The position numbers and the translations under genes are program-made. DNA of 64,000 nucleotides from Nematopogon swammerdamellus (taxonomy: Eukaryota; Arthropoda; Insecta; Lepidoptera; Adelidae), in contig OX336340.1 in assembly GCA_946902875.1 (NCBI GenBank), forward strand, positions 293,501-357,500, read 5' to 3'. The notes beneath the pieces were generated by a model that was given only the letters and a program-made list of their open reading frames with translations, had not been told where the DNA came from and did not search any database. Shown piece by piece: positions 10,829 through 56,830 of this stretch (positions within the stretch are counted from its first letter, which is position 1; every line of letters begins with the position of its first letter).

Positions 10829-11216
10829 AAAACCTACCGACATAATTTGCCTCAACATTCACCAATTTTCTTTACAGCACGTGGTATCTCCTTACCTTAC
10901 TCATATTTTTTGGGTTTCGTATTTTAAATATTGGCATTATCTTATTTTGGTAGGTAGGTACGTAGGGAAGAAAGAAAGGTAAGCGATTATAAGTTTTTTT
11001 TCGAATTGTAACGAGTAGGCACGTGGAATTGTTCTTGTGAGAGTGAAACATTGAAATGATTTTTTTTTCTTTCCTTCCTTTTGCAGTCCAATAAGTATCA
11101 CAGGTCACAGGAACCGAGGCAACTAACTCAAGATATCTTCGCACTATACTTTTTTTCTCTTCTGCACGTATGGACACCATTCTGTTGCGCTCGACTGTTC
11201 CAAGCGGATGCCATGG
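10827..11216. other. 3' flank of the Beat-like ORF
   Basis: AT-rich with pyrimidine runs. No obvious poly(A) signal within about 100 nt of the stop on the minus strand, so the 3' end of the transcript is not defined here. Confidence 0.4.
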
Positions 11217-12062
11217 TCACATCGCGAGGCTGCGTACTCCGAACGAAACAACAGCGAGGGCGGCGGCGGTGGCGGGTGCGGGGGCGGAGGCGCCGCCCGT
11301 GCGCTGCTCCTCCGGCTGCGGATGCTCCGCGCCCGCAGCGCCAGCGGCGGTGGGAGCGCGGGAGTCGCGCCAGCGCGCCCTGGCCGTGCTCGAGCCGAGC
11401 AGTCTGCCGGCGGAGAACTCGGCGCACTGCACGGCCGCCTCCGCGCGCGCCCCCAGGAACAGCAGTCGCGTCGCCTCCAGCCGCAGCTCGGGCGAGCCGC
11501 GCGCCACCTCCTGCCCGTTCACGTACCAGCGCAGGTGCGAGTCCGGCGCTGCGTCGCACCGCGCGCGGATTTCCTCTCCGGCGGCGTACTGGTCGCGCAG
11601 GCCGCTCAGCGTGGGGCGGCGCGCGGTGGCGCCGAGGCCGCGCACGCGCATGTGCCCCGTGCTCGCCGCGAACTTGTACGGCGGGCGCTCGCGCTCGATG
11701 TCGCAGCGGTAGGCGCCGCTCGCCTCCTCCGTGAGCTCGTCGAGCCGCAGCCGGCAGGCGGTGGGGCCGCACGCGAGCGCGCGCACCGAACCGACGCCGA
11801 GCGCGGGGAAGGTGCGCGTGCTGGGCGCCGCGCCAGGCGTGTAGCGGAAGAACTCCTGCCGCCCCTTCCACCACTTGAGCACGGTGAAGTCGGCGTCGTA
11901 CGTACACTCGACCTCGACACCGGCGCCGCCGGCGGCGTCGCGCGCGGGCTCCACGTATTCGGGCACGGAGAGCGAGGTGATGCGGAAGGCGTGCTCGGCG
12001 CCGGCACTCGCGAGCGCGACCAGCACAGCGAGCGTCGTGCGCGCGCGCACCGCGCCCGCCAT
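11217..12062 (-). CDS. Beaten-path (Beat)-like two-Ig-domain protein, uninterrupted ORF
   Basis: This is a 281-residue ORF. ATG 12060-12062 was chosen because it starts a signal peptide (MAGAVRARTTLAVLVALASA) in good context (G at -3 and +4); 23 codons are open further upstream without an ATG. Ig1 has CTYDAD, KWWKG and EFFRYTP, then YRCDIE. The EFxRYxP block is characteristic of the Beat family of axon-guidance ligands that bind Side receptors. Ig2 begins at PTLSGLRDQY, with Cys, LRWYVNG and VQC. A Pro/Ala-rich stretch leads to a weakly hydrophobic end (ALAVVSFGVRSLAM), perhaps a poor GPI signal. Oddities: very high GC, and no intron across both Ig domains, unlike the multi-exon genes usual in the family. 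It could be a retrocopy, an intron-loss copy, or one large exon of a longer gene. Expression is unproven. Confidence 0.75.
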   Translation of the reverse strand: MAGAVRARTTLAVLVALASAGAEHAFRITSLSVPEYVEPARDAAGGAGVEVECTYDADFTVLKWWKGRQEFFRYTPGAAPSTRTFPALGVGSVRALACGPTACRLRLDELTEEASGAYRCDIERERPPYKFAASTGHMRVRGLGATARRPTLSGLRDQYAAGEEIRARCDAAPDSHLRWYVNGQEVARGSPELRLEATRLLFLGARAEAAVQCAEFSAGRLLGSSTARARWRDSRAPTAAGAAGAEHPQPEEQRTGGASAPAPATAAALAVVSFGVRSLAM

Positions 12063-12330
12063 CCCTGCCGTCTCGCCTTCACCACTCCGGTCTCCGACTG
12101 CCGACACTGCCGAGCGAGCGACACACTCCACGCTGCGTCTCGCCGCTGAATAACGCGGAGCGGAGATCGTCGCCGCGAGGATGAGGCAGTCCCTTAATTA
12201 ACGAGTAAATTAAGTCGTTTAAAGGATCGCGACCACCGCGCCCGCGCCCTTCCTGCGCCGCTGTGACTCCGGTGACGCGTGCTGGATGATCCGTCCTTAC
12301 CTCGATATTTAGATAGAGTGACATGTACTG
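12063..12330 (-). promoter_or_regulatory. CpG-rich region upstream of the Beat-like ORF
   Basis: Immediately 5' of the ATG (minus strand) the sequence stays GC- and CpG-rich for about 260 bp, then drops to AT-rich DNA. It would hold the 5' UTR and promoter. No clear TATA box was seen. Confidence 0.35.
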
Positions 12331-25401: not shown

Positions 25402-26476
25402 GTATACGTAGTTTGGCAATTAAGTCCCGGGAATTTAGCTATAACTCGGGAACTGGCAACACTTCGTCGTTTATAGCCATATTGCTGGAAAGAAGGGACC
25501 ATCGTTCCATTCGAAATTTGAAATTAATGGCGCGCTTCGTTTGTTTTTTATGTGTGTTTTTCTAAAGTAATAGGATAGAGTAGAATAGATTTTTTAGTGG
25601 CTTCGTTAAAATGAGTGAACTCACCGAGAACACTTCTTTACTATCATTTTAATTGATTTATGTTTTTTTATAGACGTCTGGAGATATCAACCTTGCGGTT
25701 ACAAAATCCAGACGTCTACACCTGCACTCTTGCGAGTACAGTGATCATGTATGCCAAATCGAGGCCCCATAGCTGTACCGTCTTCCGAAAAAAATCCCAT
25801 GGGAAACACAGACTGTGACCTTTCCCCAGCCGATCCGAGCCACCACCCGTCCACCCGAAGAAACCCCCGGCCGTAGCCGAGAGCCGGGGGTGAAGCCTTC
25901 ACTGCCACTGGGGTTCGCTCCCTATCCAACCTCAGCTTGTGCCCAGGGCCTCAGCTCTTTGTGCTAGCCGTAGCTTTTGTTTTCACCAGCTATGTATATG
26001 CGTGGGAGTGCATATGACCACCACCTAATGTGTACCGGGGATCCACCGGTATCGAAGACTTACAGCGTCTTTGACTCGTGAGAAATCGAACCCACATCCA
26101 CATATACCGAGAACACCTGGATCTTGCACCACAACGCGCCGGCCCATTCCTCGTTCATTGTGCAAGAGTTTTTGGCGAAAAAAGGCATTCCAACGTTGCC
26201 GCAGCCACCCTATAGCCCCGATATAGCCCCCTGCAACTTTTTCTTGTTCCCCAAGATGAAGTTGTACCTCAAGGGAACTCATCATGGCCGCTCAGAGGAG
26301 GTCAACGAAGCTGTAACCGCGGTGCTGAACGAGTTAACTTCGGAAGATTACCAAGGGTGCTTCCAATCATGGGAGCGACGTTGGAATCGTTGTGTAGGGA
26401 GACTATTGTGAAGGTCGGTAATACAATTTTGTTCCTATCTTAATTTGTTTGTATTTTATTGCCACACCTCTTATAC
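25402..26476 (+). mobile_element. mariner-type transposon, broken
   Basis: The imperfect inverted ends are GTATACGTAGTTTGGCAATTAA and, at the right, the complement of GTATAAGAGGTGTGGCAATAAA. At 26115-26411 a frame reads ILHHNAPAHSS ... LPQPPYSPDIAPCNFFLFPK and continues to a stop at 26409-26411. That is the C-terminal catalytic part of a mariner transposase. The usual LHHDNAPAH lacks its Asp and CDFFLFP is CNFFLFP, so two acidic residues of the triad are lost. The N-terminal part is replaced by unrelated DNA. Confidence 0.7.
25672..26100 (-). mobile_element. SINE-like insertion inside the mariner
   Basis: It starts with the hairpin AGACGTCTGGA...TCCAGACGTCT (25672-25717). The other end, on the minus strand, reads TGTGGGTTCGATTTC, a B-box-like motif. 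No transposase homology lies in this block. Class uncertain. Confidence 0.4.
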
Positions 26477-26930
26477 TTCTGAGATGAGATACGTTCTTCA
26501 TTATCCACCCCGAGCCCGCCTGTAATAATATTTAATTATCAACTTAACATCTATCCCTCCTAACTTCGTATAATTGCCGAAGTTCCGCGCGTGAGCTACA
26601 AAGAAAAACTTTCCGTTGACTAATTAAATTGGCGGTCTGCGCCGGCATCCGTAAATCTTACAAACTTCAAATAATCCTAAAAGAGGTTCGACTTTTGTAC
26701 ACGCACGATAGAAGTCAGTAGACGTGGGCAGACCCCTTGGCAATACTCTGGCTCTAGGGAGAGGTCTGCGTGCGGGCGGGGCGGGGTACGGGTGAGTTAG
26801 TTATTAACTCTGTTTAGGAGTGAGGTGTGAGTTGTGACTGTGACACACATTGACAATTATTCGACTGATCAACACTCAAAGCGCTCACCAGCTAACATAG
26901 TCATATGCACTGTTACTCTATTGGCCAAAC
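26477..26930. other. no gene seen
   Basis: Non-coding unique-looking DNA before the minisatellite. Confidence 0.45.
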
Positions 26931-28015
26931 TGAATGAGTGTGCCAATGTCTAGGAGGGTAGAGTATGAATGAGTGTGCCAATGTCTAGGAGCGTAGATTA
27001 TGAATGAGTGTGCCAATGTTTAGGAGGGTAGAGTATGAATGAGTGTGCCAAGGTCTAGGAGGGTAGAGTATGAATGAGTGTGCCAATGTCTAGGAGGGTA
27101 GAGTATGAATGAGTGTGCCAATGTCTAGGAGGGTAGAGTATGAATGAGTGTGCCAATGTCTAGGAGCGTAGATTATGAATGAGTGTGCCAATGTTTAGGA
27201 GCGTAGAGTATGAATGAGTGTGCCAATGTCTAGGAGGGTAGAGTATGAATGAGTGTGCCAATGTCTAGGAGGGTAGAGTATGAATGAGTGTGCCAATGTC
27301 TAGGAGGGTATAGTAAGAATGAGTGTGCCAATGTCTAGGAGGGTAGAGTATGAATGAGTATGCCAATGTCTAGGAGGGTAGAGTATGAATGAGTGTGCCA
27401 ATGTCTAGGAGGGTAGAGTATGAATGAGTGTGCCAATGTCTAGGAGGGTAGAGTAAGAATGAGTGTTCCAATGTCTAGGAGGGTAGAGTATGAATGAGTG
27501 TGCCAATGTATAGGAGGGTAGAGTATGAATGAGTGTGCCAATGTCTAGGAGGGTAGAGTATGAATGAGTGTGCCAATGTCTAGGAGGGTAGAGTATGAAT
27601 GAGTGTGCCAATGTCTAGGAGGGTAGAGTATGAATGAGTGTGCCAATGTTTAGGAGGGTAGAGTATGAATGAGTGTGCCAATGTCTAGGAGGGTAGAGTA
27701 TGAATGAGTGTGCCAATGTTTAGGAGGGTAGAGTATGAATGAGTGTGCCAATGTCTAGGAGGGTAGAGTATGAATGAGTGTGCCAATGTGTAGGAGGGTA
27801 GAGTATGAATGAGTGTGCCAATGTTTAGGAGGGTAGAGTATGAATGAGTGTGCCAATGTTTAGGAGGGTAGAGTATGAATGAGTGTGCGAATGTCTAGGA
27901 GGGTAGAGTATGAATGAGTGTGCCAATGTTTAGGAGGGTAGAGTATGAATGAGTGTGCCAATGTCTAGGAGGGTAGAGTATGAATGAGTGTGCCAATGTC
28001 TAGGAGGGTAGAGTA
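26931..28015. repeat. 35-bp minisatellite, 31 copies
   Basis: The unit is TGAATGAGTGTGCCAATGTC followed by TAGGAGGGTAGAGTA. 1085 bp is exactly 31 x 35. Variants are mostly single substitutions (TCTAGG/TTTAGG, GGGTAG/GCGTAG). No spacers, so not CRISPR. Confidence 0.97.
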
Positions 28016-35195: not shown

Positions 35196-35650
35196 GAAAT
35201 AATAATAATCTGATTCTTTCGATAATCTGACTTTACTATAACCTGACTCTACTATAATCTGATCCTTTCGATAACCTGACTCTACTATAATCTTATTCTT
35301 TCGTTAACCTGACTCTACTATAATCTGACTCCTTCGATAACCGGACTCTACTATAATCTGAATCTACTAAAATCTGACTCTTTCGATAACCTGACCTTAC
35401 TATAACCTGACTCTACTATAACCTGACTCTACTATAACCTGAATCTACTATAATCTGACTCTTTCGATAACCTGACTCTACTATAACCTGACTCTACTAT
35501 AACCTGACTCTACTATAACCTGAATCTACTATAATCTGACTCTTTCGGTAATCTGACTCTACTATAACCTGACTCTTTCGATAATCTAACTACTATGATC
35601 TGACTCTTTCGATAATCTGACTTTACTATAATCTGACTCTTTCGATCTCT
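35196..35650. repeat. tandem array of 16-17-bp units upstream of the esterase
   Basis: Two alternating units, CTCTACTATAACCTGA and CTCTTTCGATAATCTGA, recur about 26 times with variation, ending about 270 bp before the esterase ATG. Confidence 0.9.
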
Positions 35651-35916: not shown

Positions 35917-36114
35917 ATGGGGGAGCGGTCGCTCGTCAGTCTCCTGACTGTGTGTGTGCTCTGTTCCATGGCGTCTGTGCTCACTGCGCAGGACTCTGAC
36001 GACTGGCTGGTGACTATCGAGCAAGGACCTGTGCGCGGCCACCTGGACAGTGTGGGGTACGCCTTCTACGGCATACCGTACGCCACCGTGCCCACCGGCA
36101 GGAACAAATTCAAA
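35917..36114 (+). CDS. esterase exon 1: signal peptide and N-terminus of domain 1
   Basis: This exon encodes 66 residues. A basic start (MGER) is followed by a hydrophobic core (about residues 5-22) and a likely signal-peptidase site near VLTA|QDS. Next comes the first esterase strand region with IEQGPVRG and YGIPYA, typical of secreted type-B esterases. The exon ends in phase 0 at AAA|GTGAGC. The reading frame is open for a further four codons upstream, but the first ATG is at 35917. A possible arthropod initiator TCAGT lies at 35790-35794; this is weak evidence for the transcription start. Confidence 0.85.
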
Positions 36115-39100
36115 GTGAGCTTTTAGACGTCCGCAGATACTTTTATAATTTCGTCATACCCGTCCGTCTGTATGACATCTTTTTATATTAGTCTTCAATA
36201 TTCTAAAGCATGGTAAAATGTTTTTTCTTTTAAATCTACTATTTCAAAAAGAGCAATTTTTTTCTACGAAAAGAAACAAATTGCTAGTCGATCTGACCAG
36301 TAGTTCTGTAGTTATAAGCATTTATTGATTTTCGAAGTTTTCGAAGCACTTTTTCTCTGGGCCATATTTATAGAAGGGACCGATGTTCGACTCTCGGGTA
36401 TGTCGTCTTAGCAAGTCGGAAGAACTATCTTTAGGACGATACGCCTCATCTTCCTGTAACTCTTATAGTTTTCGAGATCTCACGCAACTTTTTGTAAAAA
36501 AACTCCGGCTGCAGGATGAAGATGTTTCATCAAATTCACGTCAAAAGTTTGAACTAAAAATATTTTTTGTAAAATTTTAAGTTCAGTGATCTTAATGATA
36601 TATCTAAAAATGTGCAAAAAATACCGTCCTCCCATCCCCCCCCCCCCTGTTCTCCTAGGCTTCCAAAGCTAAAATTTTGACTTTCATAGGGTTAGTAGAT
36701 GAGTGCATTTTTTTCGACAATGTAATATTTTCGGAGAAGAAACATGTTTTCGTTTTAGTACGTAACCATAATATGTGTGAGACTCGCTCTTAACCGCTAT
36801 TTTTATTACAGTTATTTTTAATCAGTTAATAATGATAGAAAACGTATTATGTTTTATTCAGGCCCCTCTCCCTCCACCTACCTGGACGGAAGTATTGGAA
36901 GCGACCGACAATGCAATTATTTGTCCACAAGAAAACATGATGACCCGCGAGGACTGCCTCGTGCTGAACGTGCACGTGCCGAGCCCTCCACCCCTGCAAC
37001 CGCTGCCGGTCATCGTGTACACTCACGGCGGCGCATTCGTCCTCGGCTACGGCTCAGCGATTTTTCCCGAGTTTTTACTACAACACGATGTCATCGTTGT
37101 AACCTTCAACTACCGTCTCGGAGCCACGGGCTTCCTCTGTCTGCAGAATGCAGAGATACCCGGTAACGCAGGGTACAAGGACCAAACCGCCGCCCTACGC
37201 TGGGTTCAACGAAATATTGCCAGGTTCGGAGGAAACCCCGACGATGTTACGATTGCCGGTTTCAGTGCGGGCAGTACGAGTGTCGAATATTTGATGTTGT
37301 CGCCGATGGCGGATGGACTGTTCAACAAAGTCATTTCCGAAAGTGGTTCAGTGTTGACAACCATGGCTTTGGCGCGAGACCCGATAGCGTTCGCTAAGCG
37401 TTTTGTCTCCGACATGGTCGGTCGAGTTGTGGAAGACCTGGCGGAAGTTGAAGATTATTTACTCAGCGCAACATCAGAACAACTAATAACAGACCGGTAC
37501 GGTTCGTATCAGTTGCAACCAGGATTCGATGCCGGTTTCACCCTATGTGTGGAACGAGAAATAGATGGAGTGGAAAACTTTATGACTGAACCTCCATTGG
37601 ATATATTGAAGAGCGGACGATACAGTAAGCGTCCGTACTTGACCGGAATGACTAGCGAAGATGGTTCGCTGTTTTTGGAACATTTCGATGAATGGAACAT
37701 TCAAATGAACGATAATTTCTCCGAATTTTTGCCCGGCGGTCTTAATTTTGGAAGTGTAAACGAGAAAAATGCAGTCGCCAATAGAGTGAAACAATTTTAC
37801 TTTAATGATGAAACAGTGAGCGAAGAAACCATAAGAGGTTTCATGGATTTTACTACGGACATAAGCTTTGGGTATTCATTGTTGCGCTCGGCCAGGCTCC
37901 ATGTACAAAACTCAGTTCCTGTATATCTGTATCTCTACAAATATGTAGTAAGCGAGTATCCTCCACACGCACACGACGACAAGATAAGGGGCGCCGTACA
38001 CTGCGCACAATCATTTTCTGTGAATAGAATCAAAGCTCTTTATAATCCGGTGATTGAAAGCCAGGACGATATTCGGATGCGAGAAAGACTAGCGCTGATG
38101 TGGTCCAACTTTGCTAAATATGGGTTCGTGCAATTTTTTTTTATTCATATTGAGCAATTTACCAATCTCATTGAATGAAGTATTCAAAATAACATTTATT
38201 TATTTATTTATTTATTTATTTACTCAAAAACCTCCTATTTACAGATAATACATAAAACCTTATATCATTAATACCTTTTCAAACATAGTTTTTTAATATT
38301 ATGCTAACTATATATGTATATGTATAATATTATGCTAACTACTATGTAAATGTATAGTATGTTATGTATTTTTATATTTCCATAATTCTTAAGGTTATTT
38401 AATTGCATCTTAGCTCCGGCTAAAATTCTCAGCTTCGGCTAACCCTCACAATGAACCTCTCAATGAACTCCAGGACTTAAATAACCGAATGGTACTTACA
38501 TACAACGCATGTGCGCACGCATACCTAATAATATGCAGGGCTAGAAATATTTAATAGTATTTTTATTATTTGGAAATGTTAGAGTTCCGGTGCCAGAAAC
38601 GTCGGAGCTGGTGCCAGTAAACTGGGAGCCTATGGAGTACGACAAGATGAACTACTTGTCTATGGACGTGGAGCTGGAGGCGCGGGAGCTGCTGCTCGGC
38701 GACCGGTTCACGCTGTGGGACGAGATATACCAGCAGTACTACGGCAGCACTGACGAGACAGGCCAGAGCAGAGTGGTCAACATAGAGCAAGGACCAGTTA
38801 GAGGCTATAAGAGCCCTTTGGGGGATTTCCACGTATTTTATGGAATACGTTACGCCACCGCTCCTACTGGAAGAGATAAGTTCAAGGTATTTTTTGACAC
38901 ATTGGGAAAACTGATGTCGAATTTTTATTAATTTTTTAATTTTCTGTAATTCGCAATACATATAAAAAATTTCAACAACAAGTTTAGTACAGTAAGTACC
39001 TGAGAGCTTTTGTCAATATTGATTTTATTTCAGGCACCTCTTCCACCACCGACGTGGACCGATATATTCGAAGCAACCGAAAATCTTATTAGGTGCCCAC

Positions 39101-42100
39101 AACCATTTCTAAGCGCTTCTGAAGACTGTCTCATCGCGAATGTTTACGTACCGACCGCTGTTCCAGAGCCGCTTCCAGTAATCGTTTACATTCACGGTGG
39201 AGCATTTATCCACGGTTTCGGCACAATGATATCCCCCGAGCTTCTCTTACCACACGATGTCATTGTTGTGCATGTTAACTACCGTCTCGGCGCCACAGGA
39301 TTTCTCTGTCTACTGAATGAAGAGATACCTGGTAACGCAGGATACAAGGATCAAGTCGCGGCCCTACGCTGGGTCCAAGGAAATATTGCCAGCTTCGGGG
39401 GAAATCCTGACGATGTTACGATTGCTGGTTTTAGTGCGGGAAGTACGAGTGTGGAATATATGATGTTGTCGCCGATGGCGGAAGGGTTGTTCCACAAAGT
39501 GATTTCTGAAAGTGGTTCAGTATTGACTCCGCTGGCTGAAGGTCGGGACCCGATAGGATTCGCTAAGCGATTTGTTTCTGATATCGCTGGACGCGATATC
39601 GAAGACCTTGAAGAAATTACAAATTATTTGCTCACTGCAACATCCGAGCACCTCTTCGCGGGATCGTATGATTCATATCAATATCGAACAGACTTTGGTA
39701 CTGGTTTTACTCTATGTGTGGAGCGAGAGATCAGTGGTGCAGAAAGCTTTTTAACGGAATCGCCATTAAGTATTTTAAAAAGTGGAAATTATTACAAGGT
39801 ACCCTACTTAACAGGTATTGCCAGCGAAGAGGGGACACTATTTTTGTCCCACTTCGATGAATGGAAAAATAGAATGGAGCATAACTTCACAGAGTTCTTA
39901 CCAGTGGGTCTAAATTTTGCAAGTGAGCATGAAAGAAACGCAGTTGCAAACAGATTGAAGACATTTTACTTCAACGACGAACCGGTGAGCGAAGACACCA
40001 TCAGAGGTTACGTTAATTATATCTCAGACGCTACATTTGGGTCTTCATTGTTACGTTCTGCCAGACTTCACGTTCAGAACTCCGTCCCTGTGTATCTCTA
40101 CCTGTACAGTTACATAGTGAGCGAATATCCTTCACATCCGCACGACGACAAGATAAGGGGCGCCATACACTGCGCACAATCATTCTGCGTGAACAGAATC
40201 AGTGTAATGCACAATCCTGTTAATGAAAACGAACATGACATTCTGATGCACAACCGACTTACTCTCATGTGGTCCAACTTTGCTAAATATGGGTAATTAT
40301 CTAGTAGTAATATTTTTCATAAATTAAAACTTAATGCTAGTTTACATACACTGAATATTGCATGTGTGTGTGTGTGTGTGTTGTGTTACTTGTCAGCTTC
40401 GGTACCTCAGTCGTGCCGACGGTCGACTTTTGTTAAGCACAAGTGGGCGCGGTCAGTACTTGGATGGGTGACCGCTCGACCGTTGGAGGCTGACCGTGGT
40501 TCGGATTCCACGTAAAATTGTAGGTCCCTTCCCTTCTTACCTTACTAGGTGGTTGGGTTTATTCCGCCCGGGCTGGTACCACCGGACTGAATGAAACGTC
40601 GTCGGTCTAAACGGGTATGTAAAAAGTTCGTGTTTTCCGACTAGTTCAGTGTAGCCGACATGAAATGAAGGGAAGCACTGACATGGCAACTAGTTCACCC
40701 GGTATTATGGGCTGACATCACGGCTGTTGTAGGTAGGTGATGTAGCCAACCGTGTCAGTTTCCATAAAAGAAAACTTGTCTTTGAAAGTGAAAACAATCG
40801 AATTTTTAATGTAAATCCTGTTAATCAGTTTAAGACTCATATAGGTAATATTTATTCTGAAATACCTAACGTTAAAATAAAATGAATAAGCCATGAATTG
40901 GAAATTCTAGAGTGCCGGTGCCGGAAACTTCGGAGCTGGTGCCGGTAAGCTGGGAGCCTATGGAGTACGACAGGATGAACTACTTGTCTATGGACGTGGA
41001 GCTGGAGGCGCGGGAGCTGCTGCTCGGCGACCGGTTCACGCTGTGGGACGAGATATACCAGCAGTACTACGGCAGCACTGACGAGACAGGCCAGAGCAGA
41101 GTGGTCAACATAGAGCAAGGACCAGTTAGAGGCTATAAGAGCCATTTGGGGGATTTCCACGTGTTTTATGGAATACGTTACGCCACCGCACCTACTGGAA
41201 GAGACAAGTTCAAGGTATTTTTGACACATTGGGAAAACTGATGTCGAATTTTATTTTTATTTTTAAAATTTTCTGTAATTCTCAATACATATAAAAATTT
41301 CAACAAGTTTATACAGTAAGTACCTGTGAGCTTTTGTCAATATTGATTTTATTTCAGGCACCTCTTCCGCCACCGACGTGGACCGATATATTCGAAGCAA
41401 CCGAAAATCTAATTATGTGCCCACAACCATTTCTAAGCGCTTCTGAAGACTGTCTCATCGCGAATATTTACGTACCGACAGTTGTTTTAGAGCCGCTTCG
41501 AGTAATAGTTTACATTCACGGAGGAGGATTCATCCACGGTTTCGGCGCAATGATATCCCCCGAGCTTCTCTTACGACACGATGTCATTGTTGTGCACATT
41601 AACTACCGTCTCGGCGCCACAGGATTTCTCTGTCTACTGAATGAAGAGATACCTGGTAACGCAGGATACAAGGATCAAGTCGCGGCCCTACGCTGGGTTC
41701 AAGGAAATATTGCCAGCTTCGGGGGAAATCCTGACGATGTTACGATTGCTGGTTTTAGTGCGGGAAGTACGAGTGTGGAATATATGATGTTGTCGCCGAT
41801 GGCGGAAGGGTTGTTCCACAAAGTGATTTCTGAAAGTGGTTCAGTATTGACTCCGCTGGCTGAAGGTCGGGACCCGATAGGATTCGCTAAGCGATTTGTT
41901 ACTGATATCGCTGGACGCGATATCGAAGACCTTGAAGAAATTACAAATTATTTGCTCACTGCAACATCCGAGCACCTCTTCGCGGGATCGTATGATTCAT
42001 ATCTATATCAACCAGACTTTGGTACTGGTTTTACTCTATGTGTGGAGCGAGAGATCAGTGGTGTAGAAAGCTTTTTAACGGAATCGCCATTAAGTATTTT

Positions 42101-43438
42101 AGAAAGTGGAAATTATTACAAGGTACCCTACTTAACAGGTATTGCCAGCGAAGAGGGGGTACTATTATTGTCACATTTCGATGAATGGAAAAATAGAATG
42201 GAGCATAACTTCGCAGAGTTCTTACCGGTGGGTCTAAATTTTGCAAGTGAGCATGAAAGAAACGCAGTCGCAAACAGATTGAAGACATTTTACTTCAACG
42301 GCGAACCGGTGAGCGAAGACACCATCAGAGGTTACGTGGATTATTTCTCAGACGCTACCTTTGGGTCTTCATTGTTACGTTCTGCCAGACTTCACGTTCA
42401 GAACTCCGTCCCTGTGTATCTCTACCTGTACAGTTACATAGTGAGCGAATATCCTTCACATCCGCACGACGACAAGATAAGGGGCGCCATACACTGCGCA
42501 CAATCATTCTGCGTGAACAGAATCAGAGTAATGCACAATCCTGTTAATGAAAGCGAACATGACATTCTGATGCACAACCGACTTACTCTCATGTGGTCCA
42601 ACTTTGCTAAATATGGGTAATTATCTAGTAGTAATATTTTTCATAAATTAAAACTTAATGCTAGTTTACATACACTGAATATTGCATGTGTGTGTGTGTG
42701 TGTGTTGTGTTACTTGTCAGCCTCGGTACCTCAGTCGTGCCGACGGTCGACTGTTGTTAAGCACAAGTGGGCGCGGTCAGTACTTGGATGGGTGACCGCT
42801 CGACCGTTGGAGGCTGACCGTGGTTCGGATTCCACGTAAAACTGTAGGTCCTTTCCCTTCTTACCTTACTAAGTGGTAGGGTTTATCCCACCCGCGTTGG
42901 TACCACTGCACTGAATGAAACGTTGGTCGAAACGGCTATGTAAAAAGTTCGTGTTTTCCATCCAGTTCAGTGTAGCCGACATGAAATGAAGGGAAGCACT
43001 GACATGGCAACTAGTTCACCCGGTGCTATGGGCTGACATCACGGATGTTGTAGGTAGGTGATGAAGCCAACCGTGTCAGTTTCCATAAAAAAAAAAATTG
43101 TCTTTGAAAGAGCAAACAATCGAATTTGTAATATAAGTCCTTTTCTGAAATAACGTTAAAATAAAACGAATAAGCCATGAATTTGAAATACTAGAGTGCC
43201 GGTGCCGGAACGTTCGGAGCTGGTGCCAGTAAACTGGGAGCCTATGGAGTACGACAAGATGAACTACTTGTCTATGGACGTGGAGCTGGAGGCGCGGGAG
43301 CTGCTGCTCGGCGACCGGTTCACGCTGTGGGACGAGATATACCAGCAGTACTACGGCGGCGGCGCGCATGCGCTCATCACATCCACTACTATACTCCTTC
43401 CCGTACTACTCGCCATCTTTAACTTATTCTATAAATAA
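35917..43438 (+). CDS. three-domain fused carboxylesterase (7 exons, 1609 aa)
   Basis: Join 35917-36114, 36862-38123, 38583-38886, 39034-40292, 40911-41214, 41358-42616 and 43195-43438. All introns are GT-AG. The exons total 4830 nt, an exact multiple of three, with one stop at the end. The product is a type-B carboxylesterase (alpha/beta hydrolase) repeated three times behind one signal peptide. Predicted triads are Ser201/Glu332/His446, Ser722/Glu853/His967 and Ser1243/Glu1374/His1488, close to the family's usual spacing. The oxyanion motifs HGGA, HGGA and HGGG are present. The nucleophile elbow is GFSAG, not the usual GESAG or GQSAG. The chain ends in a hydrophobic tail suggesting a GPI or membrane anchor. 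The family hydrolyses carboxylic esters such as pheromones, hormones, xenobiotics and lipids; the substrate here is unknown. Start ATG 35917 has a good context (A at -3, G at +4). Inference: one gene, because exons 3 and 5 lack a stop and lack a new signal peptide. Several alternatively spliced products remain possible. Confidence 0.85.
36115..36861 (+). other. esterase intron 1
   Basis: 747 bp, GTGAGC...TTCAG. Contains a C13 run near 36637-36650. No other feature seen. Confidence 0.8.
36862..38123 (+). CDS. esterase exon 2: catalytic body of domain 1
   Basis: The exon is phase 0 at its start (acceptor TTATTCAG) and phase 2 at its end (GG|GTTCGT). It encodes residues 67-486. It carries the APLPPPTW segment after the first intron, a CPQ...EDCL disulfide pair, the oxyanion HGGAF, nucleophile GFSAG (Ser codon 37264-37266), the Glu in TSEDG (37657-37659) and the His in GAVHC (37999-38001). 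By eye it is about two-thirds identical to exons 4 and 6, so this domain split off earlier. Confidence 0.88.
38124..38582 (+). other. esterase intron 2
   Basis: 459 bp, GTTCGT...TTAG. Has an ATTT microsatellite at about 38192-38221. It lacks the SINE present in introns 4 and 6. Confidence 0.8.
38583..38886 (+). CDS. esterase exon 3: C-terminus of domain 1 fused to N-terminus of domain 2
   Basis: The exon begins in phase 2 and ends in phase 0 (AAG|GTATTT). The first part (VPVPETSELVPVNW ... LWDEIYQQYYG) is the usual C-terminal segment of a type-B esterase. With no stop it runs through a short STDETGQSR linker into VVNIEQGPVRG, the N-terminal segment of the next domain. No ATG or signal peptide precedes the second part. 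This exon is the physical evidence for the fusion. Confidence 0.85.
39034..40292 (+). CDS. esterase exon 4: catalytic body of domain 2
   Basis: The exon starts in phase 0 and ends in phase 2 (GG|GTAATT). It has HGGAF, GFSAG (Ser codon 39433-39435), ASEEG (Glu853) and GAIHC (His967). I count 23 residue differences from exon 6 in about 419, roughly 95% identity. The intron that follows carries a SINE (about 40392-40768). Confidence 0.88.
40392..40768 (+). mobile_element. SINE-X copy in esterase intron 4
   Basis: The 5S-like head contains GGTCAGTACTTGGATGGGTG, an excellent match to the 5S intermediate element and C box. The body ends at CCAACCGTGTCAGTTTCC and an A-rich tail. Confidence 0.85.
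40911..41214 (+). CDS. esterase exon 5: C-terminus of domain 2 fused to N-terminus of domain 3
   Basis: The exon has the same length (304 nt) and phases as exon 3 and is almost identical to it (for example VSW for VNW, and SHLG for SPLG). It again joins an esterase C-terminus to the next N-terminus through STDETGQSR. It is the second fusion point. Confidence 0.85.
41358..42616 (+). CDS. esterase exon 6: catalytic body of domain 3
   Basis: The exon has the same length (1259 nt) and phases as exon 4. The catalytic Ser codon is at 41757-41759 in GFSAG, Glu1374 is in ASEEG and His1488 in GAIHC. The oxyanion motif here is HGGGF rather than HGGAF. Other changes cluster near the entrance loops (PTVVLEPLRV for PTAVPEPLPV), which might alter substrate choice; this is inference. 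Confidence 0.88.
42714..43097 (+). mobile_element. SINE-X copy in esterase intron 6
   Basis: At the same position as the intron 4 copy, with the same flanking CTGAATATTGCATGTGTG sequence. It was therefore duplicated with the exons rather than inserted twice. Confidence 0.85.
43195..43438 (+). CDS. esterase exon 7: C-terminus of domain 3 with anchor-like tail
   Basis: The first about 53 codons nearly match exons 3 and 5. After YYG the sequence diverges into GGAHALITSTTILLP and further hydrophobic residues ending NLFYK and a stop. A small-residue patch followed by about 18 hydrophobic residues at the extreme C-terminus fits a GPI-attachment signal; a tail-anchored TM is the alternative. AATAAA signals lie at 43437-43442 (overlapping the stop) and 43499-43504. 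Confidence 0.85.
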
Positions 43439-43504: not shown

Positions 43505-44481
43505 AAATAACATGACTATAGAAAATTTTCTGGTGTTTTCCCTACACATACCTACAAAATAAAAATTACCTAGGGTCAACTCCATGGGTAAACTTCTTAA
43601 TTCGTTCATCATTTCCTAACCATTGCATGAGAACGGGATGTGCTCTTTATATGTGCTAAACTTGTTTTTGCTCGCAGACTGTGTACCGTTACTTTGTAGT
43701 AATTTACATGTCCGGATTGATACCAACGCACTGAATAAAAATCTGTCGAAGCGGTTATGAAATTAGGTCGTGTATTTCGCCCAGTTCAATTCAGTCCGCA
43801 CGACCTAAGGGAAGCACTGACATGACACCTAGTTCACCAAGGTGTTAAGGGTTGACATCACAGTGTAGTGTGACATTTATATAAGAGGATAATGAAGTAA
43901 ACAATTTCCATACAATGGGGCGACCTGACATGTCTTACCCAAACGGACAGTAGTGGTGAGATTATGCACTGAAAGTTGAGCGTAATCAAAACGTGTTCCG
44001 GGAGAATTGCTATATCACAGAAAGTATAGCGAGGAATATATTATTATTTGATATACCTTAAGAAGGATGCCTAAATGAGTGCCCAAGTAATGTGTATAAT
44101 GATATTTTAAGATATGATGAGTAATCAAAATTTAGATTTTTTTGGGATTTCGCCAGTGAGATGATTTTAAAAAGTTGAAAAATATCGGAGATTTTAACAC
44201 ATATTCAAATACCAAAAATACTATTTTATAGGTGTTGAAATGGACTATTGATCGAAATGTCATTAGTTCATTTAAGATTATAAATTGTTTGGGATGTGAA
44301 TTTCGGGACTATGGCGTGACTAAAGTCGAAAAATTGCAAACAATATTAATATTGTCAGAAGGTAAAAAAACCTTTAGTCAATAACGACGGTATCGTTTGA
44401 AACACAAGAATTGGCCAATTCTGAGAGGAGTCAAATGGGTTCGAGTACGAACATGGAATTTTATTTCATGTTCGGCAGATG
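43505..44481. other. no gene seen; degenerate SINE-X
   Basis: 43710-43862 resembles the SINE-X body (TTGATACCAACGCACTGAAT, GGGAAGCACTGACATGACAC). The rest is AT-rich. Confidence 0.5.
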
Positions 44482-44806
44482 TCCACAGCGATCTGTCCAG
44501 GACTTAGTCCACAGCGGTCTGTCCGGAACTTAGTCCACAGCGGTCTGTCCGGGACTTAGTCCACAGCGGTCTGTCCGGGACTTAGTCCACAGCGGTCTGT
44601 CCGGGACTTAGTCCACAGCGGTCTGTCCGGGACTTAGTCCACAGCGGTCTGTCCGGGACTTAGTCCACAGCGGTCTGTCCGGGACTTAGTCCACAGCGGT
44701 CTGTCCGGGACTTAGTCCACAGCGGTCTGTCCAGGACTTAGTCCACAGCGGTCTGTCCGGGACTTAGTCCACAGCGGTCTGTCCAGGACTTAGTCCACAG
44801 CGGTCT
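44482..44806. repeat. 26-bp minisatellite, 12.5 copies
   Basis: The unit is TCCACAGCGGTCTGTCCGGG followed by ACTTAG. 325 bp is 12.5 units, with very few variants (CCGGG/CCAGG). Confidence 0.97.
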
Positions 44807-47888: not shown

Positions 47889-49882
47889 TCTATACATATA
47901 ATAAAATCGTAGAGGTAAGAAAGTCTGTACATTGAATGTATTCGGAAAAAAACTAACCAGGGTGGCTTAAAATGAGATACTGAACATGTTAGAACAGTTT
48001 TTAAAATTTTTGTTTGTTTGTTTGTTTGTTTGTCTGTACGCGCATCACGCAAAAACCACTGAACGGAATTAGACGAAACTTTGTATAGTGGCAGTTTATA
48101 TGCCGGGTTAACATAATACGTAAAAAAAAATTAACAAAAATAAAAAAAAATTCACAATTATAAACATTATTGCGCGTTTAAAATCACGTAGTCCAAAGTA
48201 AAGGTAAAAACAATTTTAAATGTCATGTTGACAACGGAGAACTGTCATCTCGACGTGAGCTGGCCGGTGACAAATTGTTTCATTATATAAAAATAATAAT
48301 TGAAAGTCGAAGTTATGTCGCTGTCATTGGTGCAATAAAATTAATATATCTGTTGCCCGCGGCTTCGCTCGCGTGAAATTCGTATTTAAAAAAAAGAAAG
48401 TAAGTAACTAAAGACGGGCCCGAAGGCGGAACTGCGCTCACGTAAACGATATTCTTTCTCGATGAAAGTAACTAAGGGCGAGGCGAAAGGCGGAGCTGAT
48501 TTCAGGAAGAAGAAAAACATTCTTGAAGAAAATAAGTAACTAAGGGCGAGGCCGAAGGCCAAGCTCTATTCTGGAAGACCATAAACCTTCTCGAAGAAAG
48601 TAAGTAACTATGGGCGAGGCCGCAGGCCGAGCTGCGTTCAGGAAGAAGCTAAACCATCTTGAAGAAAGTAAGTAACTAAGGCGAGGCCGAAGGCCGAGCT
48701 ACGTTCGGATAATTGAAAAACCATCTCGAAGAAAGCAAGTAACTAAGGGCGAGGCCGAAGGCCGAGCTGCGTTCAGGAAGAAGCTAAACCATCATGAAGA
48801 AAGTAAGCAACTAAGGCGAGGCCGAAGGCCGAGCTACGTTCTGACAAATGATAAACCATCTCGAAGAAAGCAAGTAACTAAGGGCGAGGCCGAAGGCCGA
48901 GCTGCGTTCAGGAAGAAGCTAAACCATCTCGAATAAAGTTAATTAATATTAAGATTGAGTTAATTTAATTTAAATTTTATTATAAAGTCCACGCTTCTAA
49001 CGGCAAATATACCGTGCATCCTAGAACCTCGCGGTTATTCCCGGCTGGATGGCAAGAGGCCCGATGCTAGAGACCTTAGTGCCATGGACTAAGGGTAGTT
49101 CTGTGATGTGGGACGCCACTTTTGTTCTCACATTGGCTCCAAGTCACGTTAGGACATCTTCAAGAGCGGCTGGCGCGGCCGAGGCTGGGGCGGAGAGCCT
49201 CCAACGCAGCAAATATAGAAATATAATTCAAGATTTCGAATTTGTTGCGTTTGCGGTTGAAACCCTCGGTCTGTGGAGCAGTGAAGCCAAAAGAGGCTTG
49301 AGCTGGTTGACGCAACTGGTGTCCCGTCATCAAGGGCTTATGTACTTCATTCAAAGGGTAAGCCTTGCCATCCAGCGGGGTAATGCCGCAAGTGCTCTAA
49401 GAACATTTGAAAATGCCCGTTTGTATAGTTATTTTAATGTTTGTTAGGTAGGTTTAATTATTTAGTTATTAATATTACTTTTTTATTTATATGAAATAAA
49501 TAGATTGAGTAAACGATATTATATTCTATCGAAGAAAGGAAGTCTTTAAGGGCGAGGCCCGAAGGCGGAAGAGGATTTTTGGTTTACCTGAACGCAGCTC
49601 GGCCTTCGGCCTCGCACTTAGTTCCTTCCTTTCTTCCAGAAGGTTTGTCGTCTTCCTGAACGCAGCTCGGCCTTCGGCCTCGCCCTTACTTCCTTTATTT
49701 GAGAAAGGTTTATCGTTTACCTGAAAGCAGCTCGGCCTTCGGCCTCGCCCTTAGTTAGTTACTTTCTTTAAGAAGGTTTATCGATTACCTGAAGGCAGCT
49801 CGGCCTTCGGCCTCGCCCTTAGTTACTTACATTCTTCTTTGGAATACGAATTTCACGCGAGCGGAGCCGCGGGCTCAGCTAG
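47889..49882 (+). mobile_element. Helitron carrying a captured reverse-transcriptase tail
   Basis: The 5' end TCTATACATATAATAAAATC follows an A. The 3' end has the hairpin GAGCC-GCG-GGCTC, then AGCTAG before a T. This fits the Helitron rules: TC start, CTAG end, A|T target, no duplication. It contains inverted blocks of 60-70-bp subrepeats with GAGGCCGAAGGCCGAGCT (48400-48930 and, inverted, 49560-49850) around an RT fragment. An inverted partner lies at 55278-56830. Confidence 0.7.
49009..49447 (+). pseudogene. captured non-LTR-type RT C-terminal fragment, frameshifted
   Basis: One frame reads IPCILEPRGYSRLDGKRPDA. After a frameshift near 49068 the ORF from 49049 continues TLVPWTKGSSVMWDATF, TLAPSHV, FEFVAFAVETLG and VSLAIQRGNAAS. 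These are blocks typical of the C-terminal end of invertebrate RT polyproteins. The frameshift is present in both Helitron copies, so the fragment was already dead when it spread. No RT catalytic motif remains. Confidence 0.7.
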
Positions 49883-55277: not shown

Positions 55278-56830
55278 CTAGCTGAGCCCGCGGCTCCGCT
55301 CGCGTGAAATTCGTATTCCAAAGAAGAATGTAAGTAACTAAGGGCGAGGCCGAAGGCTTACCCTTTGAATGAAGTACATAAGCCCTTGATGACGGGACAC
55401 TAGTTGCGTCAACCAGCTCAAGCCTCTTTTGGCTTCACTGCTCCACGGACCGAGGGTTTCAACCGCAAACGCAACAAATTCGAAATCTTGAATTATATTT
55501 CTATATTTGCTGGGTTGGAGGCTCTCCGCCCCAGCCTCGGCCGCGCCAGCCGCTCTTGAAGATGTCCTAACGTGACTTGGAGCCAATGTGAGAACAAAAG
55601 TGGCGTCCCACATCAAAGAACTACCCTTAGTCCATGGCACTAAGGTCTCTAGCATCGGGCCTCTTGCCATCCAGCCGGGAATAACCGCGAGGTTCTAGGA
55701 TGCACGGTATATTTGCCGTTAGAAGCGTGGACTTTATAATAAAATTTAAATTAAATTAACTCAATCTTAATATTAATTAACTTTATTCGAGATGGTTTAG
55801 CTTCTTCCTGAACGCAGCTCGGCCTTCAGCCTCGCCCTTAGTTACTTGCTTTCTTCGAGATGGTTTATCATTTGTCAGAACGTAGCTCGGCCTTCGGCCT
55901 CGCCTTAGTTGCTTACTTTCTTCAAGATGGTTTAGCTTCTTCCTGAACGCAGCTCGGCCTTCGGCCTCGCCCTTAGTTACTTGCTTTCTTCGAGATGGTT
56001 TTTCAATTATCCGAACGTAGCTCGGCCTTCGGCCTCGCCTTAGTTACTTACTTTCTTCAAGATGGTTTAGCTTCTTCCTGAACGCAGCTCGGCCTGCGGC
56101 CTCGCCCATAGTTACTTACTTTCTTCGAGAAGGTTTATGGTCTTCCAGAATAGAGCTTGGCCTTCGGCCTCGCCCTTAGTTACTTATTTTCTTCAAGAAT
56201 GTTTTTCTTCTTCCTGAAATCAGCTCCGCCTTTCGCCTCGCCCTTAGTTACTTTCATCGAGAAAGAATATCGTTTACGTGAGCGCAGATCCGCCTTCGGG
56301 CCCTTCTTTAGTTACTTACTTTCTTTTTTTAAATACGAATTTCACGCGAGCGAAGCCGCGGGCAACAGATATATAAATTTTATTGCACCAATGACAGCGC
56401 CATAACTTCGACTTTCAATTATTATTTTTATTTATCAAACAATTTGTCACCGGCCAGCTCACGTCGAGATGACAGTTCTCCGTTGTCAACATGACATTTA
56501 AAATTGTTTTTACCTTTACTTTGGACTACGTGATTTTAAACGCGCAATAATGTTTATAATTGTTATTTTTTTTTATTTTTGTTAATTTTTTTTACGTATT
56601 ATGTTAACCCGGCATATAAACTGCCACTATACAAAGTTTCGTCTAATTCCGTTCAGTGGTTTTTGCGTGATGCGCGTACAGACAAACAAACAAACAAACA
56701 AACAAACAAAAATTTTAAAAACTGTTCTAACATGTTCAGTATCTCATTTTAAGCCACCCTGGTTAGTTTTTTTCCGAATACATTCAATGTACAGACTTTC
56801 TTACCTCTACGATTTTATTATATGTATAGA
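55278..56830 (-). mobile_element. second Helitron copy, inverted, internally deleted
   Basis: On the minus strand it starts TCTATACATATAATAAAATC after A and ends ...GGGCTCAGCTAG before T. It matches 47889-49882 over almost all its length. It lacks the part corresponding to about 49371-49805, joining AAGGC directly to the RT fragment. Confidence 0.7.
55338..55670 (-). pseudogene. captured RT C-terminal fragment, truncated copy
   Basis: Nearly identical to the fragment in the first Helitron (TLVPWTKGSSLMWDATF, FEFVAFAVETLGPW). It is cut after MYFIQRVSL by the internal deletion. Confidence 0.7.

What the first reader, a model, noticed from the sequence alone, without database searches (positions are those of the whole stretch)
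35917..43438. A single gene appears to encode three carboxylesterase domains in one secreted, anchored chain
Seven GT-AG exons join in one frame (4830 nt, 1609 codons plus stop). Exons 3 and 5 each run from an esterase C-terminus straight into the next esterase N-terminus with no stop, no start and no signal peptide. Only the first domain has a signal peptide and only the last has a hydrophobic anchor-like tail. All three Ser-Glu-His triads are intact. Insect type-B esterases are normally single-domain proteins of about 550 residues, and tandem copies are normally separate genes.
Basis: partly seen in the sequence, partly recalled or inferred. Interest (0 to 1): 0.92.

Follow-up and report, generated by a model that had tools for sequence, protein, structure and literature searches.

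The report
Three-domain anchored moth esterase gene
One insect gene appears to string three copies of an ester-cutting enzyme into a single secreted, probably membrane-tethered protein; similar predicted chains exist in other moths and butterflies, so it is unusual rather than unique.

Summary
Seven GT-AG exons (35917-43438, +) join into 4830 nt, 1609 codons plus stop, 180.7 kDa. They encode three carboxylesterase domains, one N-terminal hydrophobic leader and one C-terminal hydrophobic tail. One correction: the catalytic acid of domain 1 aligns as Asp333, not Glu.

Exons 3 and 5 are composite: the last exon of a standard three-exon Lepidoptera alpha-esterase gene fused in frame to its first exon, without tail or leader. 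Domains 1 and 2 are old duplicates under purifying selection (dN 0.16, dS 1.08); domains 2 and 3 are recent (dS 0.06). The map fits one unequal crossing-over in a two-domain gene.

It is not unique. Public collections hold predicted relatives with leader-free junctions: three-domain in Trichoplusia ni (itself a crossover mosaic), two-domain in Chrysodeixis, Colias, Spodoptera exigua and Leptosia. The window's domains are one another's closest sampled relatives, and the tree needs repeated gains or losses of fusion. Hydrophobic tails are commoner in a hand-picked set of fused relatives (10 of 21) than in single-domain hits (5 of 120).

Transcription, protein size and exact domain number remain untested.

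The parts
35917..36114 (+). Exon 1: hydrophobic leader (aa 1 to about 24, cut site judged by eye) and N-terminus of domain 1; ends phase 0
36862..38123 (+). Exon 2: body of domain 1 (S201, D333, H446)
38583..38886 (+). Exon 3, composite: C-terminus of domain 1 (shared with exon 7 to 38745), linker, N-terminus of domain 2; no stop, no leader
39034..40292 (+). Exon 4: body of domain 2 (S722, E854, H967)
40911..41214 (+). Exon 5, composite: C-terminus of domain 2 and N-terminus of domain 3; intron 4 before it resembles intron 6, its second part resembles exon 3, and intron 5 after it resembles intron 3
41358..42616 (+). Exon 6: body of domain 3 (S1243, E1375, H1488)
43195..43438 (+). Exon 7: C-terminus of domain 3, GGGA then hydrophobic tail (GPI-signal-like), stop
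40974..41073 (+). 100-nt run identical in exons 3 (38646-38745), 5 and 7 (43258-43357); likely region of the unequal crossing-over, exon 5 copy given here
40391..40790 (+). Dispersed repeat in intron 4; the matching copy in intron 6 is at 42715-43110 (93%), so it predates the domain 2/3 duplication

Best explanation
This is one gene for a secreted, probably GPI-anchored chain of three esterase domains of the Lepidoptera alpha-esterase kind (best hits in clade 001). Step 1 (inferred): a recombination joined the last exon of one three-exon esterase copy, upstream of its anchor signal, to the first exon of the next copy, downstream of its leader. That gave a composite exon and a two-domain protein. 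Step 2 (supported by the map): unequal crossing-over between the near-identical C-terminal exon copies (exon 7 with exon 3) added a third domain in one step. Function (inferred): three catalytic sites per anchored chain, perhaps at the midgut surface, raise esterase amount and local density without new promoters. Domains 1 and 2 could differ in substrate.
For: An open frame with GT-AG borders. Intron positions and phases match the conserved silkworm alpha-esterase introns (phase 0 at residues 42-74, phase 2 at 469-515; PMC2784812 passage): here after residue 66 (phase 0) and after residue 486 (phase 2). D1-D2 dN 0.160 against dS 1.084, so both were kept under purifying selection. Introns 4 and 6 are 94.3% identical and introns 3 and 5 are 95.0%, whereas intron 2 does not match 4 or 6 (42-44%). 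C-terminal exon parts are 95-97% identical although the D1-D2 bodies are 74%. That is the map expected from an exon 7 x exon 3 crossover. T. ni P0003 shows the same signature inside the domain: D2 matches D3 (98-100%) in the first six 50-column blocks and D1 (98-100%) in the last five. Loxostege P0006 shows it less sharply, and its linkers keep leader-like stretches. Leader-free junctions exist in other Lepidoptera predictions. Catalytic Ser and His are kept in all three window domains, with Glu or Asp as acid. PMC3017765 says many CCEs of clade 001* were confirmed in the silkworm midgut (passage).
Against: No transcript, proteomic or read-level evidence. D2-D3 selection is weakly resolved (dN/dS about 0.5, Fisher p 0.021; chance of no stop in 56 random changes 0.08). 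Exon 5 matches exon 3, not exon 7, at offsets 16-17 inside its otherwise exon-7-like start, so the crossover account needs a little later change. The GPI call rests on hydrophobicity and small residues read by eye, not on a predictor. The best single-domain relatives are only 48% identical, and clade 001 membership is not firmly resolved. The T. ni mosaic is a gene prediction and could itself be an assembly or model artefact.
Confidence: 0.74

Rival explanations
1. The true gene has two domains. The assembler passed twice through a loop at the repeated C-terminal exon, laying two alleles of the same unit (domains 2 and 3) head to tail.
For: Exons 3, 5 and 7 share a 100-nt identical run, enough to tangle a short-read graph; domains 2 and 3 differ by only about 3% in exon body and 5-6% in introns.
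Against: 5-6% intron divergence with indels (42 gap columns between introns 4 and 6) is high for two alleles (own knowledge). T. ni shows a comparable three-domain mosaic, though that could share the artefact. The fusion of domain 1 to domain 2 cannot be explained this way, since those bodies are 74% identical with dS about 1.
Confidence: 0.13
2. Separate transcripts: the locus makes one or more shorter esterases by internal promoters, early polyadenylation or alternative splicing, and the full chain is rare or absent.
For: AATAAA/ATTAAA hexamers lie in introns 4 and 6 (40323, 40876, 42647, 43160) as well as after the stop (43437, 43499, 43558), and read-through of exons 4 and 6 meets a stop 2 nt on.
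Against: Exons 3 and 5 carry no start followed by a leader, so domains 2 and 3 alone would lack a secretion signal; a stop after exon 2, 4 or 6 would remove the conserved C-terminus of that domain.
Confidence: 0.09
3. A polyprotein: made as one chain, then cut at the linkers into free esterases by gut or secretory proteases.
For: Short hydrophilic linkers holding a single Arg.
Against: No dibasic or furin-type site seen by eye in the linker; the single tail would anchor only the last unit.
Confidence: 0.04

Closest known systems
Trichoplusia ni uncharacterized protein LOC113492805 (P0003, 1592 aa)
   Same: Three full esterase domains, one hydrophobic leader, leader-free linkers (11 aa between domain matches), middle domain a crossover mosaic
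   Different: 43% identity over the chain; no hydrophobic tail; the tree groups its domains with Chrysodeixis, not with the window; crossover inside the domain rather than in the C-terminal exon
Chrysodeixis includens P0011 (1092 aa) and Spodoptera exigua P0018 (1102 aa), predicted
   Same: Leader only on the first domain, leader-free linker, hydrophobic tail only on the last
   Different: Two domains; the two lie apart from each other and from the window in the tree
Lepidoptera carboxyl/cholinesterase clade 001 (CCE001, 'esterase FE4-like', antennal esterase CXE7)
   Same: Best single-domain hits; the 120 listed of 3113 have 37-48% identity over nearly the whole domain
   Different: Mostly about 555 aa with one domain; 5 of the 120 listed have a hydrophobic tail
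Cydia P0027, Achroia P0029 and Colias P0229 two-domain esterases of another clade
   Same: Short linkers (1-6 aa) between full domains; first domains group together, and second domains group together along with both domains of Galleria P0043
   Different: Other clade, perhaps an older fusion, two domains
Diatom alginate lyases with duplicated domains (Nitzschia sing1, PMC11960938; abstract and passages seen)
   Same: Enzyme domains multiplied within chains, explained by unequal crossing-over
   Different: Unrelated enzyme and lineage
Bacterial multimodular carbohydrate esterases (PMC12247016; listing and start of abstract only)
   Same: Several esterase domains in one chain
   Different: Bacterial carbohydrate esterases, not type-B carboxylesterases of insects

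Membership tests
Carboxylesterase type B family (PF00135) / insect carboxyl-cholinesterases | Match to the family profile above its cut-off | tested here: met
   on two pieces (residues 1-588; exons 6-7); domain 2 by the profile built
Carboxylesterase type B family (PF00135) / insect carboxyl-cholinesterases | GxSxG, catalytic Ser, Glu or Asp, His, and HGG oxyanion motif in each domain | tested here: met
   the acid of domain 1 is Asp333
Carboxylesterase type B family (PF00135) / insect carboxyl-cholinesterases | Esterase activity | not testable with these tools
   no assay
Typical single-domain insect esterase | One domain, about 550 residues | tested here: not met
   three domains, 1609 aa
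Lepidoptera clade 001 (CCE001) | Groups inside clade 001 in a tree | tested here: inconclusive
   best hits are named clade 001 or FE4-like, but the window branches outside the 38 sampled singles, near Eumeta; no formal clade test
Lepidoptera alpha-esterase gene structure | First intron phase 0 at residues 42-74, second phase 2 at 469-515 (PMC2784812) | tested here: met
Fused multi-domain esterases without internal leader | Full domain end to full domain start, short linker, no hydrophobic stretch | tested here: met
GPI-anchored proteins | Leader, C-terminal small-residue site, spacer and hydrophobic end | tested here: inconclusive
   hydrophobicity only; no GPI predictor on hand

The most novel reading that the evidence does not exclude
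Lepidoptera repeatedly build membrane-tethered esterase chains by fusing the last and first exons of tandem esterase genes, and then change domain number by unequal crossing-over inside the gene. Domain number would be an evolvable, perhaps polymorphic, dose setting within one protein.
Probability: 0.35. Interest if true: 0.72.

Novelty: new variant of a known kind. Interest (0 to 1): 0.52.

Why it matters
Insect esterase dose is known to rise by making more separate gene copies (own knowledge). A chain of active domains behind one promoter, one leader and one anchor would be another route. Surveys that expect genes of about 550 residues may split such genes or discard them as merged models. 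Domain number that shifts by crossing-over would be directly measurable in populations. The association of fusion with a C-terminal tail suggests a surface enzyme cluster with a testable role in digestion or detoxification.

Tried and rejected
Uniqueness of the window gene: rejected, since searches found many multi-domain predictions. One shared origin of the clade-001-type fused proteins: not supported. The tree needs 14 changes of the label, at least 6 of them on well-supported branches. That tree counts some dubious merged models as fused, and one row labelled single (P0108) holds a partial second domain.

All database multi-domain proteins as real fusions: rejected. Only 56 of 114 junctions (two of them the window's) join a full domain end to a full start, and many of those keep a leader-like stretch of 2 or more on the Kyte-Doolittle scale. 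Of the 28 new proteins, parsed, 8 have such a junction; one of the 8 (P0229) has a short linker.

Separate tandem genes: rejected on the composite exons. Another esterase gene nearby: none found. A described RNA family in the window (gathering scores) or in the intron repeat (E up to 1): none. Structure: the AlphaFold2 model of the two-domain Chrysodeixis relative was poor (mean pLDDT 58, ten-row alignment) and was not used. Pfam on 9 of the 16 ORFs of 130 aa or more outside the gene: nothing at E 0.01. Species: not identified.

Literature: searches listed all or nearly all papers holding their terms, and no title or abstract start listed describes a tandem multi-domain insect esterase; the matches concern mostly microbial and carbohydrate esterases. 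One search is a weak negative (25 of 1,126 papers listed); one search asked for other terms. The one 'tandem esterase' passage (PMC9960965) means three separate genes. Two silkworm esterase papers were searched for words such as fused and domain; none of the passages shown speaks of a multi-domain esterase. Only open-licence papers are covered.

The list headed 'not intact' used the wrong acid column and is disregarded. From that call's column counts for the 50 domains of other fused proteins: Ser in 48, Glu or Asp in 50, His in 50.

Full report
OBSERVATION. One search gives the sequence and the splicing. Trying GT and AG positions near the claimed borders left two open structures, the claimed one and one 24 nt shorter in exon 2. 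The claimed one has 4830 nt: 1609 codons and a stop. Exons begin in phases 0, 0, 2, 0, 2, 0, 2. An in-frame stop lies 30 nt upstream of the ATG. Reading on past any of the six donors brings a stop within 53 nt. The predicted mass is 180.7 kDa.

DOMAINS. A profile built from eight domains (three of the window, three of T. ni, two of Colias) finds three full domains. Pfam PF00135 hits the two pieces tested. Among solved structures (167 matches, 60 listed) the best is 7mp4, Carboxylesterase-24 (E 4e-58); those listed are mostly named carboxylesterases, cholinesterases and neuroligins, most of them chains of about 490-600 residues (exon 4 only). The alignment there and puts the triads at S201-D333-H446, S722-E854-H967 and S1243-E1375-H1488. 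The finding's 'three Ser-Glu-His triads' is therefore two with Glu and one with Asp. The oxyanion motif is HGGAF, HGGAF and HGGGF.

COMPOSITE EXONS. The silkworm paper PMC2784812 (passages) reports for alpha-esterases a phase 0 intron at residues 42-74 and a phase 2 intron at 469-515. Domain 1 has these, after residue 66 and after residue 486. Each later unit repeats the pattern, with last exon and first exon fused. Exon 7 shows what the original last exon looks like with its tail, and exon 1 what the first exon looks like with its leader. Exons 3 and 5 have neither.

HISTORY. D1-D2: 74% identical in protein, dN 0.160, dS 1.084. D2-D3: 94%, dN 0.031, dS 0.060. Intron 4 matches intron 6 (94.3%) and intron 3 matches intron 5 (95.0%); intron 2 matches neither 4 nor 6. 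Yet the C-terminal parts of exons 3, 5 and 7 are 95-97% identical, with a 100-nt run identical in all three. A crossover between exon 7 of one chromatid and exon 3 of the other predicts this map. Exon 5 agrees with exon 7 at offsets 3, 12 and 18 and with exon 3 at 16 and 17, so the fit is good, not perfect. A dispersed repeat sits in both introns 4 and 6 and has 16 further matching stretches in the window at E 1e-3 or better, so its insertion predates the second duplication.

RELATIVES. The full-chain search scored 7981 candidates and listed 106; a second, drawn from residues 488-1140, scored 7984 and listed 70. Both scored only the candidates sharing most words. With the window's own protein, 86 of 107 parse as multi-domain, with 114 junctions, 56 of them joining full ends to full starts, two of the 56 being the window's. 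In the group that resembles the window most, leader-free short linkers (11-16 aa, hydrophobic mean 1.0 or less) occur in P0003 (T. ni, both junctions), P0010 (Colias), P0011 (Chrysodeixis), P0012 (Leptosia) and P0018 (S. exigua). Others such as P0004, P0006, P0009, P0013, P0015 and P0016 keep a hydrophobic leader-like stretch and may be merged models. T. ni domain 2 equals domain 3 in its first half and domain 1 in its second: the mosaic expected from unequal crossing-over inside a two-domain gene.

TREES. Of 91 domains (53 from fused chains, 38 of the 120 listed single-domain hits), the window's three form one group (SH-aLRT 100). T. ni and Chrysodeixis form another. The label 'fused' needs 14 changes, at least 6 on supported branches. 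Fusion thus looks recurrent, with the caution that some fused rows may be false models. In the second tree (61 rows) the first domains of Cydia, Achroia and Colias group together, and so do their second domains, joined by both Galleria domains. That suggests an older two-domain gene in another clade, or a repeatedly merged neighbouring pair. Both trees are quick searches without bootstrap.

TAIL. A hydrophobic C-terminus (10-residue mean of 2 or more in the last 25) occurs in 10 of 21 hand-picked fused chains of the window's group (window and some dubious models included) and in 5 of 120 single-domain hits (Fisher 1.1e-6, not corrected for kinship). Several tails follow small residues (GGGA, GSGG, GAAS, GSGA), as GPI signals do (own knowledge).

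FUNCTION. Inferred: a surface-bound chain of three esterases. PMC3017765 (passages) reports midgut expression for many silkworm CCEs of clade 001*. Whether the window gene is expressed there is unknown.

LIMITS. No RNA, no reads, no species name. The own-genome search did not complete. The three-domain count rests on the assembly; the fusion of domain 1 to domain 2 rests on firmer ground, since these copies are too different to be alleles. No printed description was seen in the listings, which cover open-licence papers only; one search listed 25 of 1,126 papers.

Noticed in passing
window 40391-40790: Dispersed repeat of up to about 400 bp with one copy each in introns 4 and 6 and 16 further matching stretches across the window at E 1e-3 or better; part of it resembles the 3' half of 5S rRNA by eye (recalled), but Rfam gives no match.
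   Followed up: partly
window 26931-28015: Tandem array of 31 copies of a 35-bp unit, 96% matches; strong GC skew there (0.317 over 26001-28000).
   Followed up: no
window 35205-35640 and 44481-44806: Tandem arrays lie on both sides of the gene: an array of 16-81 bp periods ending about 280 bp upstream of the start codon and a 26-bp array about 1 kb downstream of the stop.
   Followed up: no
window 48394-48939, 49582-49836, 55780-56253: A 68-bp satellite-like unit occurs in three separate arrays in the window, by eye in both orientations.
   Followed up: no
window 11060-12197: GC-rich stretch with long overlapping open frames on both strands and no Pfam match in the three frames tested.
   Followed up: partly
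proteins P0048, P0051, P0069, P0070 (Pectinophora, Choristoneura, Operophtera, Bombyx LOC101737440): Two-domain predicted esterases whose second domains group together (SH-aLRT 100) and whose first domains mostly do: an old fusion or, since P0048 keeps a leader-like stretch in its linker, a repeatedly merged neighbouring pair.
   Followed up: partly
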